59,672 bases of DNA, from the NCBI GenBank assembly GCA_030695565.1, contig JAUYRZ010000071.1, positions 1 to 59,672 of the forward strand, read 5' to 3'. The position numbers were made by a program, and so were the translations under genes. This document shows positions 8,546 through 25,772 of the stretch, piece after piece. The stretch is from Archangium sp. (lineage in GTDB: Bacteria > Myxococcota > Myxococcia > Myxococcales > Myxococcaceae). Every line of letters begins with the position of its first letter. Within the stretch, counting starts at the first letter, position 1. Below the pieces are notes generated by a model. The model did no database searches. It worked only from the letters and a program-made list of their open reading frames with translations, and was not told the DNA's origin.

Positions 8546-9496
8546 ATGGCACCTGGCTTGCTGTTCGGCGTGCCTGTGGAAGTCCTCTTCAAACGTCATT
8601 TCTGGCTGGTCCACCTGCTCTTCATCTTCGCGGTGGCCTGGCTCGTCATGCGCACGGCAAACGCCTTCATCGAGGCGGCCCTTCTCCCTCTCCCGACTGG
8701 AAGGTCGGGGCCGGTGAAGGCGCAGCGGCTGTTGCCCATGGCCGCGCTCAATCTCGATCGGGTGGCCAAGGCCCTCGGCCTGCCGGTGCCCAAGCCTGAA
8801 CCGTTGGTGCAAGAGCCGACCACCCCGGTGGTCGATCAGAACGCCGCGCCGGTGCACACCACCCTGCGGGTCAAGCTGCTCGGCACGCTGGTGAGCGAGA
8901 ACATGCCGGAGTGGTCGGTGGCCAGCATTCAAGACGTGGTCACCCTCAAGACCAACACGTACATGATCGGCGATCGCGTGCAGGGCGCCGAGGTGATGGA
9001 GATCGAGCGCCTGCGGGTGATCGTGATCAACAACAACCGCCGCGAGTTCATCGACGCCACGCCCGGCGACATGAGCGGTGCACCGCCCCCGCCCGCGCCC
9101 GTGATCTCGGCCAGGGCCGTCGACAGTGGCCCGCCGCCCTCCGTCGCGCTGGGCGCGAGCGTGAAGCAGATTTCAGACAACGACTACGAGATCCCCCGCG
9201 CTGAGATCGACAAGACGCTGGCGAACTTGAACGACGTGGCCATGCAGGCGCGCATCGTGCCGGCCTTCAAAGACGGCGTGGCGCAGGGGTTCAAGCTCTT
9301 CTCCATCCGCCCGGATTCCATCTATTCGAAGATCGGCATCCAGAACGGTGACGTCATCAAGCGCATCAACGGGTTCGACCTGAACAGCCCGGAGAAGGCG
9401 CTTGAGATCTACTCCAAGCTCAAAGAGTCCTCGCGCATCGACATCGAAGTCGAGCGCAACGGGGCCGCTGTCCGCAAGACCTACAACGTCAAGTGA
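8546..9496 (+). CDS. gspC: Type II secretion inner-membrane protein GspC
   Basis: 316 residues from ATG 8546 (AGGA five bases upstream) or 306 from GTG 8576. It links the inner-membrane platform to the secretin. One transmembrane helix (W-L-V-H-L-L-F-I-F-A-V-A-W-L-V, about 21-35) is followed by a Pro-rich linker, the homology-region domain that contacts GspD (about 105-160) and a C-terminal PDZ domain with I-Q-N-G-D-V-I-K-R-I-N-G near 270. It is the first gene of the gsp operon and overlaps gspD by four bases. GTG 8576 gives M-E-V-L-F-K-R and would be required if the overlapping sigma54-like site is real. Confidence 0.93.
   Translation: MAPGLLFGVPVEVLFKRHFWLVHLLFIFAVAWLVMRTANAFIEAALLPLPTGRSGPVKAQRLLPMAALNLDRVAKALGLPVPKPEPLVQEPTTPVVDQNAAPVHTTLRVKLLGTLVSENMPEWSVASIQDVVTLKTNTYMIGDRVQGAEVMEIERLRVIVINNNRREFIDATPGDMSGAPPPPAPVISARAVDSGPPPSVALGASVKQISDNDYEIPRAEIDKTLANLNDVAMQARIVPAFKDGVAQGFKLFSIRPDSIYSKIGIQNGDVIKRINGFDLNSPEKALEIYSKLKESSRIDIEVERNGAAVRKTYNVK
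8547..8562 (+). promoter_or_regulatory. Candidate sigma54 -24/-12 promoter for the gsp operon
   Basis: TGGCACCTGGCTTGCT matches the sigma54 consensus TGGCACG-N4-TTGCW at every fixed position except the seventh, with the exact 16-base layout. It overlaps the first possible gspC start (ATG 8546). If active, transcription would begin near 8573, and translation would have to start downstream, for example at GTG 8576. The match could be coincidental because ATG 8546 has its own AGGA ribosome-binding site. Confidence 0.45.
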
Positions 9497-13715: not shown

Positions 13716-14969
13716 ATGCCCGTCTTCGAATACAGAGGCCTGAGCGCCGCAGGAAAGAACGTGGAGGGCCTCAAGGAAGCCGAGAGCCCCAAGACGTTGC
13801 GGTCGGTGTTGCGCAAAGACGGCATCTTCCTCACCGACGTGGTGGGGCAGGCCGAAGGCGCGATCAAGCCGGGCGGCAAGGCGAAGGCGACCTCGCTGGG
13901 CAGCACCGAGGTCAACTTCAAGCTGAGCGGCGGCAGCGTCAGCACCGACGACATCGCCGTGATGACCCGCCAGCTGGCTACCCTGCTCAAGGCCGGCGTC
14001 TCGCTCGTCGAAGCGCTGGCCGCGATGGTCGATCAGGTCGAGAAGGAGAAGTTGAAGCGCATCCTCTCCGACGTGAAGCAGCGGGTGAACGAAGGCAGCT
14101 CGTTGGGTGACGCGCTCAACACGCACGTGAAGGTGTTCGGCCCGCTGTTCGTGAACATGATTCGCGCGGGTGAGAGCTCGGGCGCGCTCGACTCGGTGCT
14201 GCTCCGTCTGGCCGAGTTCACCGAAGGCCAGGCCCGCCTCAAGCAGAAGATCGTCGGCACGATGATCTACCCGGCCATCATGTTGGTCATCGGCGGCGGC
14301 GTGCTCATCATGCTGATGACCGTGGTGGTGCCGAAGGTGACGAAGATCTTCGACGACATGAAGGTCAACCTGCCGTGGACCACCAAGCTGTTGATCTGGA
14401 GCTCGAACTTCCTCCAGGACTACTGGTTCGTGGTGGTGCCGGCGCTCATCGCCAGCGCGATCGGGCTCTACAAGTGGGCGGGCTCGGAGAAGGGCAAGCC
14501 GGTGTGGGATCGCGTGGTCTTGAAGATCCCCGTGTTCGGCCCGCTGGTGCGGCACCTCTCGGTGGCCCGCTTCACCCGCACGCTCGCCACGTTGCTCAAG
14601 TCAGGCGTGCCGCTGCTCACTGCGCTCGACATCGTGAAGAACGTCATCACCAACAGCACGATGTCGGCGGTGGTCGACACGGCCCGTGACGCGATTCGTG
14701 AAGGTGAGAGCATCGCGGCGCCGCTGAAGAAATCGGGCGAATTTCCGCCGCTCGTCTACCACATGGTCGGCATCGGCGAGCGCTCGGGCCAGCTGGAAGA
14801 CATGCTGCTCAACGTGGCGGAGAGCTACGAGTCGAGCGTCAACGTGCGCATCGGCGCGCTCACGGCGCTGCTCGAGCCGATGATGATCGTGATGATGGGT
14901 GCGGTGATCGCGTTCGTCGCCTTCTCCATCTTGATGCCCATTCTGCAGATGAACTCGATGGTGCGGTGA
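13716..14969 (+). CDS. gspF: Type II secretion platform protein GspF
   Basis: A 417-residue polytopic inner-membrane protein with the two GspF cytoplasmic domains. The N-terminus P-V-F-E-Y-R-G-L-S-A-A-G-K is typical. Domain 1 has T-R-Q-L-A-T-L-L-K-A-G-V near 90 and domain 2 the equivalent F-T-R-T-L-A-T-L-L-K-S-G-V near 290. Hydrophobic helices lie near 185-210, 230-250 and 385-410. It contacts GspE and GspL and anchors assembly of the pseudopilus. A 37-codon membrane-peptide gene begins nine bases after its stop. Confidence 0.96.
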   Translation: MPVFEYRGLSAAGKNVEGLKEAESPKTLRSVLRKDGIFLTDVVGQAEGAIKPGGKAKATSLGSTEVNFKLSGGSVSTDDIAVMTRQLATLLKAGVSLVEALAAMVDQVEKEKLKRILSDVKQRVNEGSSLGDALNTHVKVFGPLFVNMIRAGESSGALDSVLLRLAEFTEGQARLKQKIVGTMIYPAIMLVIGGGVLIMLMTVVVPKVTKIFDDMKVNLPWTTKLLIWSSNFLQDYWFVVVPALIASAIGLYKWAGSEKGKPVWDRVVLKIPVFGPLVRHLSVARFTRTLATLLKSGVPLLTALDIVKNVITNSTMSAVVDTARDAIREGESIAAPLKKSGEFPPLVYHMVGIGERSGQLEDMLLNVAESYESSVNVRIGALTALLEPMMIVMMGAVIAFVAFSILMPILQMNSMVR

Positions 14970-14977
14970 GGACTCCC

Positions 14978-15091
14978 ATGCACGCTCCGGTTGTTCAAAA
15001 GCACGACCTGTTGATTCAGCGAGGCGTCACGCTCGCGCTGCTCACCCTCGCCGCGACGCTCGTCTGCGCGGCGCTCGTTTTGTACGTCTGA
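14978..15091 (+). CDS. 37-residue single-helix membrane peptide in gsp operon
   Basis: A short ORF between gspF and gspG, starting at ATG 14978 and ending TGA 15089-15091. The product has a polar N-terminus (M-H-A-P-V-V-Q-K-H-D), a basic residue, and one long hydrophobic helix (G-V-T-L-A-L-L-T-L-A-A-T-L-V-C-A-A-L-V-L, about 16-35). It fills almost the whole gspF-gspG gap. I do not know a named family for it. It could be a small platform subunit, a pseudopilin chaperone, or simply a spacer. Upstream GAGGAC gives a weak ribosome-binding site. Confidence 0.6.
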   Translation: MHAPVVQKHDLLIQRGVTLALLTLAATLVCAALVLYV

Positions 15092-15104
15092 AAGGAAGAA
15101 GCAC

Positions 15105-15527
15105 ATGAAACCCGCATTGGCTCGTCACCTGGCCCGTCGTCGTCGCTCTGCACGGGGCATGACGCTCATCGAGATCATCGTCGTCATCACCATCCTGTCG
15201 CTGCTGATGGCCGCGGTCGGTATCGCCGTCATTCCCCAGCTCGATCAGGCGAAGGTCGATCGCGCGTACCTCGACATCGCGAACATCAGCAACGCGCTGA
15301 AGACCTACTACGCCAAGAAGGGCAACTACCCGGACACCGGCGGCGGGCTCAAGGCCGTGGTCGACGCGCAGATCCTCGAGAAGATGCCGGTCGACCCGTG
15401 GGACCACGAGTACGTGTACCTGAACGAGGGCGGCAAGCCGGTCGTGATGTCGTACGGCAAGGACGGCGCTCCTGGTGGCACCGAGAGCGACGCCGACATC
15501 TCCTCGAAAGACAGCAGGAAGAAGTAG
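15105..15527 (+). CDS. gspG: Major pseudopilin GspG
   Basis: A 140-residue major pseudopilin that forms the periplasmic piston. A basic leader (residues 1-18) ends in R-G, and prepilin peptidase would cleave before M-T-L-I-E, leaving Glu at mature position 5. The helix I-I-V-V-I-T-I-L-S-L-L-M follows. The globular part has the GspG motifs Y-Y-A-K-K-G-N-Y-P and P-V-D-P-W-D-H-E-Y, and an acidic C-terminus (E-S-D-A-D-I) suited to the calcium site. GGAAGAAG just upstream is a good ribosome-binding site. No prepilin peptidase gene is in this window. Confidence 0.97.
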   Translation: MKPALARHLARRRRSARGMTLIEIIVVITILSLLMAAVGIAVIPQLDQAKVDRAYLDIANISNALKTYYAKKGNYPDTGGGLKAVVDAQILEKMPVDPWDHEYVYLNEGGKPVVMSYGKDGAPGGTESDADISSKDSRKK

Positions 15528-15536
15528 CCCGAGGCC

Positions 15537-15653
15537 ATGAAGAAACCGGACGATGACAAGCAGAACGGGCTTTCGCCCCTGACGATCGCGGTGGCGCTGG
15601 GCGCCAGTGCGGGCGTCTGGCTCGTCATCGACGTGCTCCGGAGGATCTTCTGA
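15537..15653 (+). CDS. 38-residue single-helix membrane peptide in gsp operon
   Basis: A short ORF between gspG and gspH: ATG 15537, TGA 15651-15653, the last base shared with the gspH start (TGATG). The peptide has a highly charged N-terminus (M-K-K-P-D-D-D-K-Q), one helix (L-T-I-A-V-A-L-G-A-S-A-G-V-W-L-V-I, about 15-31) and a basic end (L-R-R-I-F). The coupling to gspH and the complete use of the gap argue for a real gene. Topology resembles other tiny inner-membrane subunits; function unknown. Confidence 0.65.
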   Translation: MKKPDDDKQNGLSPLTIAVALGASAGVWLVIDVLRRIF

Positions 15654-23214: not shown

Positions 23215-23297
23215 AGGTGGGTTGCAGTGACCCAGCGCGCGCGCGTCGAATCTCAGCTACTGATTTTCACACGTCCTGCTTCCTGGAGCCCCCCTAC

Positions 23298-25772
23298 ATG
23301 CGCCGAACCGCTTTCCCGAAGTTGGCCGTTGCAGCCTGTCTTTCTCTCGCGGTCCTCGCAGGCTGCGGCGGCACCATCACGCCCCCGCCCGTGCCGAGCT
23401 GCAGCGACGGCATCAGCAATGGCACCGAGTCAGACGTCGATTGCGGCGGCAGCTGCGGCATCTGCGCCACCGGCAAGGCGTGTGCGGCGGGCGCCGACTG
23501 TGCGACGGGCGTCTGCACTGGCAGCACCTGCCGGGCTGCCGACTGCGTTGACGGCATCAACAACGGCGCAGAGACCGACGTCGACTGCGGCGGAACGTGC
23601 GCGAAGTGCGAGAGCCCGAAGTCCTGCGCGACGGCCTCCGACTGCGCCAGCGGCGTGTGCACGGCGAAGACCTGCAGCGCCTCGCTCTGCACCGACGGCG
23701 TGAAGAACGGCACCGAGACCGACCTCGACTGCGGCGGCAGCTGCGCCACCAAGTGCGCGGCCGGAGCGGCGTGCGCGCTTCCCACCGACTGCACCAGCGA
23801 CGTATGCGACTCGGGCGCCTGCCGCGCGTCGTCGTGCGCCGACACCGTCAAGAATGGCAGCGAGACCGCCATCGACTGCGGCGGCAGCTGCAGCACGAAG
23901 TGCGCGAACGCGGCCGGGTGCCTGCTGGGCGGCGACTGCGCCAGCGGCGTCTGCGACTCCACGACCTTCACCTGCAGCGCGGCGCTCTGCACCGACGCCG
24001 TGAAGAACGGAGACGAGACCGACATCGACTGCGGTGGCAGCTGCACCACCCGGTGCGCGAACGCGGCCACGTGCACGAACGCGGCGGACTGTGTGAGCGG
24101 CGTGTGCAACGGCACCTGCTCCACGCCGGCCTGCGTGGACAGGGTGAAGAACGGCGCCGAAACCGACGTGGACTGCGGCGGCAGCTGCGCCACGAAGTGC
24201 GCCGACCTGAAGGCCTGCGCTGCCCCGAGCGACTGCACCAGCAGCGTCTGCAGCTCAGGCTCGTGCGCGGTGCCCAGCTGCACCGACACCCTGCGGAACG
24301 GCTCGGAGACGGACGTCGATTGCGGCGGCAGCTGCACCCCGTGTGCGACGGGGGGCGTGTGCGCGATGGGCACCGACTGCACCAGCGGCGTGTGCAACGC
24401 GAACGCATGCGCGGCGCCCAGCTGTACCGACACGCGCAAGAACGGTTCGGAGACCGATGTCGACTGCGGCGGCAGCTGCACCGACTGCATCGCCACCCGG
24501 GCCTGTCTCAGCGGGGCGGACTGCGTCAGCCAGGTCTGCACCAACGCCATCTGCCAGGCCGAGAGCTGCACCGACGCCGTGAAGAACGGCACCGAGACCG
24601 ACCGCGATTGTGGTGGCACTTGCGCGGCGTGCGCCGACGGCCTGGTCTGCCAGGGCACCGCCGATTGCCGCAGCCGGGTCTGCACCAACAGCACCTGCCA
24701 GCCCTCGAGCTGCACCGATGGAACCCAGAACGGCACCGAGACCGATCAGGATTGTGGCGGCACCTGCGCTCCCTGCGCCGATGCCTCAGATTGCCAGGTG
24801 ACGGCCGACTGCCTGAGCCGGGTCTGCACCAACAACCTCTGCCAGGCCCCTTCCTGCACGGACACCGTGAAGAACGGCGCCGAGAGCGACCTCGACTGCG
24901 GTGGTGGCACCTGCCCCGTGTGCGCCGACACGTTGGTCTGCCGCGGCGGCGCTGACTGCGCGAGCGGCGTGTGCGTCGGTGGCACCTGCCGCGCGCCCAG
25001 CTGCTCAGATGTGGTGAAGAACGGCGTCGAGACCGATGTGGACTGCGGTGGTGCCTGCTCGCCGTGCGCGACCACGAAGCGGTGCCTGGCGGGCGCCGAT
25101 TGCCAGAGCAGCGTGTGCTCCGGGGGAACCTGCCAGGCCCCCAGCTGCTTCGACCTGGTGAAGAACGCCGTCGAGACGGACATCGACTGTGGTGGTGGAA
25201 CCTGCGCGCGGTGCAACGACACGAAGCGGTGCCTGGGTAGCTCCGACTGCAGCAGCGGGGTGTGCACCGCGGGCCTGTGCCGCGCCCCCGCCTGCAACGA
25301 CGGCGTGAAGAACGGCACCGAATCCGACCGGGACTGCGGTGGAAGCTGCGCGCCGTGCGCCAATGGACTGGCCTGCAATGCAGGTGCGGACTGCACCAGC
25401 GGCAGCTGCACGAACAACGTGTGCGCGACTCCCCTGCTCAACGGGTGCAGCATCGACACGGCGACAGACCTCACCGGCGGCGCAGGGGTGGTGATCACCT
25501 TCGCGAACGGCAACCTCACCTACGCCCCCAAGTGCATCAAGGTCAGCGCGGGGACCCCAGTCACCTTCAACGGCAACTTCGCCAGCCACCCGATGATCGG
25601 CGGCACGGTGAGCGGCGGCGTAGCGACCCCGGCGTCGAGCGGCCCCTTCATTCCGGTCACGAACGCCGGCACCAGCAAGACCTTCACGATGAGCGCCCCG
25701 GGCAACTTCCCGTATTACTGCCAGCCCCACGCCACCCTCGGGATGAACGCGGCGATCTTCGTCGTGCCCTGA
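23298..25772 (+). CDS. Lipoprotein with 14 Cys-rich repeats and C-terminal cupredoxin domain
   Basis: 824 residues from ATG 23298; the frame is open upstream, but this start gives a clean signal peptide with lipobox L-A-G-C near residue 23. Residues about 35-715 hold 14 tandem repeats of roughly 48 residues with the pattern C-x-D-x-x-x-N-G-x-E-T-D-x-D-C-G-G-x-C-x-x-C, then D-C-x-S-x-V-C-x-x-x-x-C; each repeat carries about eight Cys, probably paired. The last 105 residues look like a plastocyanin-type cupredoxin: H in F-A-S-H-P, then [11 protein letters not shown], giving His, Cys, His, Met copper ligands. A surface stalk carrying an electron-transfer or copper head is the likely design. Confidence 0.9.

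What the first reader, a model, noticed from the sequence alone, without database searches (positions are those of the whole stretch)
14978..15653. Two micro-membrane-peptide genes flank the major pseudopilin gene
A 37-codon ORF between gspF and gspG and a 38-codon ORF between gspG and gspH each encode one hydrophobic helix with a polar N-terminus. The second shares its last base with the gspH start codon. They fill the gaps on either side of gspG and are not part of the standard gsp gene list. They may be small platform or assembly factors specific to myxobacterial type II secretion.
Basis: partly seen in the sequence, partly recalled or inferred. Interest (0 to 1): 0.7.

Follow-up and report, generated by a model that had tools for sequence, protein, structure and literature searches.

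The report
Two overlooked membrane microproteins beside gspG
Two 37-38-residue, single-helix membrane proteins really are encoded on either side of the main pseudopilin gene of a myxobacterial protein-secretion operon; one is conserved across almost all of its bacterial family and beyond, so it is probably an unannotated small subunit of that secretion machine.

Summary
Both ORFs lie at the stated coordinates, and they are the two most hydrophobic ORFs of 20-59 codons in the whole window.

"FG" (14978-15091, 37 aa) was found once per genome, between gspF and gspG, in 93 of the 96 same-family genomes searched. Homologues sit in the same slot in five other families of the class. FG is absent from Anaeromyxobacter, families f4/f7, the other classes sampled, and 30 genomes of the phylum of a Bdellovibrionales MAG.

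"GH" (15537-15653, 38 aa) is confined to one clade of the family (18 genomes). In the sister clade (Myxococcus, Corallococcus, Archangium) its slot holds a GspG-like protein with an uncleaved membrane anchor.

Both show purifying selection (0 of 1000 neutral simulations as extreme), coding-type GC3 and one conserved helix face. Neither has a family model or derives from the membrane segments of GspC-GspN. One same-genus MAG has lost both with gspE-gspK present, so they are not indispensable.

Most likely FG, and less surely GH, are accessory single-helix subunits of the type II secretion platform, working as CydX does in cytochrome bd oxidase. Coding status is well supported, membership of the machine is inferred from linkage, and the binding partner is not shown.

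The parts
14978..15091 (+). FG microprotein ORF (37 aa): one transmembrane helix with conserved D-x-[WL]-[IL]-Q-R just before it and L...A..L...G..L-Y along one face; predicted N-in
15537..15653 (+). GH microprotein ORF (38 aa): G-L-S-P then one transmembrane helix with conserved A, W, D/E and basic C-terminal flank; stop overlaps the gspH start (TGATG); predicted N-out, weakly
14967..14977 (+). gspF stop plus spacer TGAGGACTCCC; GAGG is a possible ribosome-binding site for FG
   Evidence: read directly from sequence
13716..14969 (+). gspF, inner-membrane platform protein (417 aa)
   Evidence: TIGR02120 489 bits
15105..15527 (+). gspG, major pseudopilin (140 aa)
   Evidence: TIGR01710 92 bits; PF08334
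15653..16333 (+). gspH minor pseudopilin (226 aa), assigned by prepilin motif, order and weak GspH model matches
8546..9496 (+). gspC (316 aa)
   Evidence: NF041515 294 bits
9493..11919 (+). gspD secretin (808 aa)
   Evidence: TIGR02517
11919..13709 (+). gspE ATPase (596 aa)
   Evidence: TIGR02533
16330..22468 (+). gspI, gspJ, gspK, gspL, gspM, gspN in order
   Evidence: gspM PF04612 45 bits; gspI, J and N by order and conserved synteny

Best explanation
FG and GH are genuine bitopic microproteins made from the gsp operon. FG is most likely a small accessory subunit of the type II secretion inner-membrane assembly platform. Its one helix (N-terminus in the cytoplasm) would pack by a conserved face (L25, A29, L32, G36, L39/Y40 in the 41-codon numbering, with D14-W16-Q18-R19 at the cytoplasmic edge; W16 and G36 are the family consensus, L and A in the window) against GspF and/or the neighbouring GspL/M/C helices, and so stabilise the platform or tune the hand-over of GspG into the pseudopilus. 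GH would be a later, clade-specific addition doing a related job near GspG/GspH. Shown: coding status, purifying selection, strict linkage to the gsp locus, and a conserved helical face. Inferred: topology, location in the machine, partner and effect.
For: FG occurs once per genome at the gspF-gspG junction in 93 of 96 same-family genomes, E 1e-7 to 2e-19 with no internal stop; of the other three, two (G007, G014) gave no or only a weak GspG match. A profile from this family alone scores 11 FG-slot proteins from other families above nearly all shuffles that keep their segment composition (0-4 of 500 as high). GH: 18 genomes at E below 1e-13, at the gsp locus. Purifying selection: FG 135.7 synonymous to 120.3 non-synonymous changes, omega-like 0.35; GH 55.0 to 54.0, 0.40; 0 of 1000 simulations as low for either. 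GC3 is 0.86 for FG and 0.93 for GH. Conservation has helical periodicity, P=0.005 for FG and 0.02 for GH. FG flanks are more basic on the N side (56 sequences against 8). Synteny C-N is kept across the phylum while these two slots vary. PulF is reported to be a trimer with its second membrane helix at the periphery (PMC10790770), and GspC/L/M membrane segments interact with each other (PMC3815138), so lateral helix docking is plausible. CydX, 37 aa and encoded in the operon of its partners, is a direct precedent (PMC4325964).
Against: No expression, interaction or mutant data exist here. FG evolves faster than GspG and GspF (omega-like 0.35 against 0.17 and 0.09). MAG G001 lost both with gspE-gspK present, and shows no private change at otherwise near-invariant columns of its GspF or GspG. 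Related families f4, f5 and f7 work without FG. Nothing points to GspF rather than GspG, GspL or GspM as the partner.
Confidence: 0.5

Rival explanations
1. Pseudopilin helper: FG and/or GH pair in the membrane with the GspG (or GspH) transmembrane segment before extraction, as holdase, guide or competitor of the pseudopilin, rather than with the platform.
For: They flank gspG on both sides. In the sister clade the GH slot holds a GspG-like protein with an uncleaved N-terminal anchor and no prepilin motif, so a pseudopilin-related function has been placed in that slot at least once. One f7 genome carries a GspG-like membrane protein in the F-G slot (L060).
Against: GspG N-termini of FG-bearing and FG-lacking lineages look alike by eye; GspG of G001 has no private changes at otherwise near-invariant columns; neither microprotein resembles the GspG, GspH or G2 membrane segments.
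Confidence: 0.22
2. Translational couplers or spacers: the act of translating the short ORFs sets gspG and gspH expression, and the peptides matter little.
For: The GH stop overlaps the gspH start (TGATG). In G001 the GH slot still holds a 37-codon ORF ending in the same TGATG overlap although its sequence is unrelated and not membrane-spanning.
Against: Amino-acid-level purifying selection, a conserved helical face, hydrophobicity kept across families, and no FG-gspG overlap. A coupler needs no particular sequence.
Confidence: 0.12
3. Operon passengers: small membrane proteins with an unrelated job (for example a stress peptide) that happen to be co-transcribed with gsp.
For: The F-G gap also accepts other genes: an lspA-like gene in family f13. 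G001 lost both microproteins without losing gsp genes.
Against: FG is single copy and was found only at the gsp locus across 93 genomes of one family and in further families. No FG was found away from gsp, on plasmids or in phage, Pfam or NCBIfam models.
Confidence: 0.14
4. Chance ORFs in spacer DNA.
For: In Markov-resampled gaps, 10-12% contain some ORF of at least 30 codons.
Against: Hydrophobicity, conservation, intact frames and synonymous bias.
Confidence: 0.01

Closest known systems
CydX, CydY and CydZ of cytochrome bd oxidase (PMC4325964)
   Same: About 37 residues, single helix with a tryptophan at its start, encoded in the operon of the large membrane partners, few fixed residues, patchy presence and different small proteins in different lineages
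   Different: No sequence relationship tested or claimed; CydX function is proven by deletion, FG and GH are untested; the partner is an enzyme, not a secretion machine
GspC, GspL and GspM, the bitopic components of the type II secretion platform
   Same: Single membrane helix, same operon, same membrane
   Different: These have large periplasmic or cytoplasmic domains and are all present in this operon in addition; FG and GH profiles do not match their membrane segments
Pseudopilins GspG-K
   Same: Short hydrophobic N-terminal helix proteins from the same operon
   Different: FG and GH lack the prepilin peptidase motif G-[FM]-T-L-x-E and any globular domain
AcrZ and KdpF type small membrane proteins
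   Same: Tiny bitopic partners of large membrane complexes
   Different: AcrZ is reported to interact with AcrB and change its resistance profile (PMC7267776); no such test exists for FG or GH, and no sequence comparison was made

Membership tests
Type II secretion (gsp) operon as host system | gspC-gspN complement in conserved order | tested here: met
   (I, J, N by order)
Type II secretion component (functional subunit) | Obligate genomic linkage to the gsp locus | tested here: met
   FG 93 of 96 family genomes, single copy at gspF-gspG; GH 18 genomes
Type II secretion component (functional subunit) | Physical association with, or requirement for, secretion | not testable with these tools
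   No such experiment found
CydX-like operon-encoded small subunit (works like) | Under about 50 aa, one hydrophobic helix, purifying selection, beside its partner genes | tested here: met
CydX-like operon-encoded small subunit (works like) | Binds a large membrane partner and alters its stability or activity | not testable with these tools
   Needs co-purification and deletion
Pseudopilin (N_methyl) | Prepilin peptidase motif followed by a helix | tested here: not met
   No motif in P0001 or P0002; no PF07963 match
Truncated GspC, GspL, GspM or GspF membrane segment | Sequence match of the microprotein profile to that membrane segment above composition-matched shuffles | tested here: not met
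Remnant of the GspG-like G2 protein of the sister clade | GH profile matches the G2 N-terminal anchor | tested here: not met
   hhalign probability 1.7%; scores within shuffles
Any catalogued family (Pfam, NCBIfam, PHROGs, PDB sequences) | Match at a meaningful E-value | tested here: not met

The most novel reading that the evidence does not exclude
FG is a previously unrecognised subunit of the type II secretion platform of one bacterial class (Myxococcia), inherited from near the root of the class and lost in some families. It would be a single-helix partner that docks on the GspF trimer or the GspF-GspLM interface and modulates pseudopilus assembly, with GH a second, younger subunit of the same kind.
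Probability: 0.38. Interest if true: 0.72.

Novelty: new variant of a known kind. Interest (0 to 1): 0.5.

Why it matters
Type II secretion is treated as a closed list of about a dozen Gsp proteins. A microprotein conserved across a family with 26 sampled genera and into five further families, yet absent from Pfam and NCBIfam, suggests the platform has small subunits that annotation misses. It gives a simple genetic test (in-frame deletion in Myxococcus xanthus) of how the GspF platform is stabilised and fed with pseudopilin. In M. xanthus an insertion in MXAN_2510, within or next to the type II secretion operon, left sporulation below 0.1% of wild type and reduced social motility (PMC9765219), so a phenotype would be readable.

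Tried and rejected
Chance ORFs: rejected. FG and GH as relatives of each other: rejected. Either as a broken-off GspC, L, M, F or G membrane segment: rejected. GH as the stump of G2, the GspG-like protein occupying the same slot in the sister clade: attractive, but no sequence support. Compensatory changes in GspF/GspG of the double-loss genome G001: no private change at otherwise near-invariant columns. GspG N-terminal signature tracking FG presence: none seen by eye. The 76-aa ORF in the same slot of L178/L269 is not recognisable as FG. M. xanthus ribosome-profiling and locus-tag literature: nothing on the small ORFs. Plasmids: no FG. Folding FG or GH alone was not attempted, since a lone 37-residue helix would say nothing about a partner, and fused constructs were not used. 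A first GspG alignment (A3) used wrong strands and was discarded in favour of A4.

Full report
What was checked. FG runs 14978-15091 (37 codons) and GH 15537-15653 (38 codons). The last A of the GH stop is the first base of the gspH start (TGATG). They sit in an otherwise standard type II secretion operon: GspC NF041515 294 bits, GspD TIGR02517, GspE TIGR02533, GspF TIGR02120 489 bits, GspG TIGR01710 92 bits, GspM PF04612, and H, I, J, K, L, N by motif, model or order. FG and GH are therefore additions to the usual list, not replacements of GspC, L or M.

Chance. Gaps resampled from their own dinucleotide statistics gave a hydrophobic ORF of at least 30 codons in 0.06% of trials for the F-G gap and in 0 of 20,000 for the G-H gap. 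Among all 20-59-codon ORFs on both strands of the 59.7-kb window, FG (2.65) and GH (2.18) have the highest 17-residue hydropathy.

Distribution of FG. The window belongs to an 8.5-Mb draft genome close to MAGs labelled Archangium. A profile of FG (A1) hits 93 of 96 genomes of the same family, each strongly once and with no stop inside. Of the three without it, G007 has no GspG match and G014 only a weak one, and G001 is discussed below. The same slot holds FG relatives in families f2, f3, f6, f9 and f10, often longer (43-87 aa) with a short extra tail. With a profile built only from the window's family, these 11 proteins outscore nearly all shuffles that preserve the composition of each segment (0-4 of 500 as high), which supports homology; the 76-aa ORF in L178/L269 does not pass. 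FG is absent where gspG follows gspF closely: families f4, f5 and f7, an Anaeromyxobacter genome (sp. PSR-1, L176), the sampled genomes of other classes, and 30 of 30 genomes read from the phylum of a Bdellovibrionales MAG. On a GspF+GspG tree this looks like one early origin in the class with losses, although the root and some deep branches are weakly supported.

Distribution of GH. GH (A2) has 18 strong genomic matches, in genera g1, g2, g5, g6, g11, g14, g18 and g19, all in one clade of the family, with a few losses inside it. Its sister clade (Myxococcus, Corallococcus, Archangium, Pyxidicoccus, Hyalangium and others) instead has a roughly 145-160-aa GspG-like protein in the same slot. That protein has an uncleaved N-terminal helix and no prepilin motif. 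Its profile matches GspG structures by sequence (EpsG 3gn9, E 3e-12), and its predicted fold matches them by structure (4lw9, E 3.5e-5, model pLDDT 81). GH is not a recognisable stump of that protein.

Coding evidence. Position-specific GC is coding-like (GC1/2/3: FG 0.70/0.55/0.86, GH 0.68/0.49/0.93). In disjoint close pairs FG has 135.7 synonymous and 120.3 non-synonymous changes (29 pairs; neutral expectation 0.718 non-synonymous, observed 0.470) and GH 55.0 and 54.0 (5 pairs; 0.713 expected, 0.495 observed). None of 1000 simulations was as low for either. Omega-like ratios are 0.35 and 0.40, against 0.17 for GspG and 0.09 for the GspF tail. In the window's own GH-bearing clade FG evolves faster (0.61) but still below neutrality. 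Both peptides are thus constrained, less tightly than their neighbours.

Anatomy. FG: variable N-terminus, then D-x-[WL]-[IL]-Q-R, then a helix whose conserved positions (L25, A29, L32 invariant, G36, L39/Y40 in the 41-codon numbering; the window itself has L at 16 and A at 36) fall on one face (P=0.005). Basic charge sits on the N side in 56 sequences against 8, so N-in is predicted. GH: acidic N-terminus, G-L-S-P, helix with conserved A25, W28 and D/E32 on one face (P=0.02), basic C-flank; the charge next to the helix suggests the opposite orientation (16 against 0), though total N-flank charge makes this uncertain. A conserved helical face is what a packed helix shows and what a mere lipid anchor or spacer need not show.

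The double loss. In MAG G001 (same genus; 79% complete, 5% contamination) gspF and gspG are separated by a short clean spacer with no FG. The GH slot carries an unrelated, non-hydrophobic 37-codon ORF with the same TGATG overlap, while gspE-gspK are present on the 6.8-kb contig. G001 is nested inside the FG/GH-bearing genus on the tree. It shows dispensability there, not that the genes are spurious. It also hints that the two may be lost together, but a single event cannot show that.

Mechanism. The best-supported reading is an accessory bitopic subunit of the inner-membrane platform. What is shown: real, constrained genes; strict linkage to gsp; a conserved helix face. What is inferred: that FG docks on GspF and/or the L/M/C helices, stabilising the platform or modulating GspG hand-over. 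External support: PulF is reported to be a trimer with TMS2 at the periphery (PMC10790770), and GspC, L and M membrane segments interact with each other (PMC3815138). The functional precedent is CydX: 37 aa, in the operon of its partners, few fixed residues, a tryptophan at the helix start, and different small proteins (CydY, CydZ) in other lineages (PMC4325964). This is likeness of working, not family membership. Rivals kept open are a pseudopilin-directed helper (0.22), an unrelated operon passenger (0.14) and a translational coupler (0.12). The coupler is weakened by amino-acid-level constraint but gains something from the retained TGATG ORF in G001.

Novelty. No Pfam, NCBIfam, PHROGs or PDB-sequence match to either protein, and no paper found in the held library describes small proteins at these positions; subscription literature was not searched. 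The system is type II secretion, so this is a new variant of a known kind rather than a new kind.

Noticed in passing
L152:3422-3868 (Myxococcus xanthus AM003) and L117-L166; alignment A5: A GspG-like pseudopilin with an uncleaved N-terminal helix and no prepilin motif sits between gspG and gspH in a whole sister clade (Myxococcus, Corallococcus, Archangium, Pyxidicoccus); possibly a membrane-fixed decoy, cap or starter for the pseudopilus.
   Followed up: partly
L214, L215, L216, L220, L221, L225 (family f13, another class): A gene of about 185 aa that reads like signal peptidase II (lspA) is inserted between gspF and gspG; identified by eye from motifs, not by a model search.
   Followed up: no
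L060 (family f7, G055:C635): A 215-aa protein with a membrane helix and a GspG-like C-terminal part lies between gspF and gspG.
   Followed up: no
L010 / L260 / L109 (MAG G001), G-H slot: GH is replaced by an unrelated 37-codon ORF that keeps the TGATG overlap with gspH, which suggests that the overlap itself may be selected.
   Followed up: partly
L036 (G011), G-H slot: A 95-codon ORF resembling the GspG C-terminal domain but with little hydrophobicity; possibly a decayed copy of the GspG-like protein.
   Followed up: no
window 23217-25772: 851-aa ORF downstream of gspN with a C-terminal plastocyanin/azurin-type copper domain (PF00127); a possible secreted protein.
   Followed up: no
L141 and L155 (records BNCN01000003 and BNCN01000010): Records labelled Comamonas sp. 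KCTC 72670 carry Myxococcus-type gsp loci (FG nearly identical to that of Myxococcus); the species label looks wrong.
   Followed up: no
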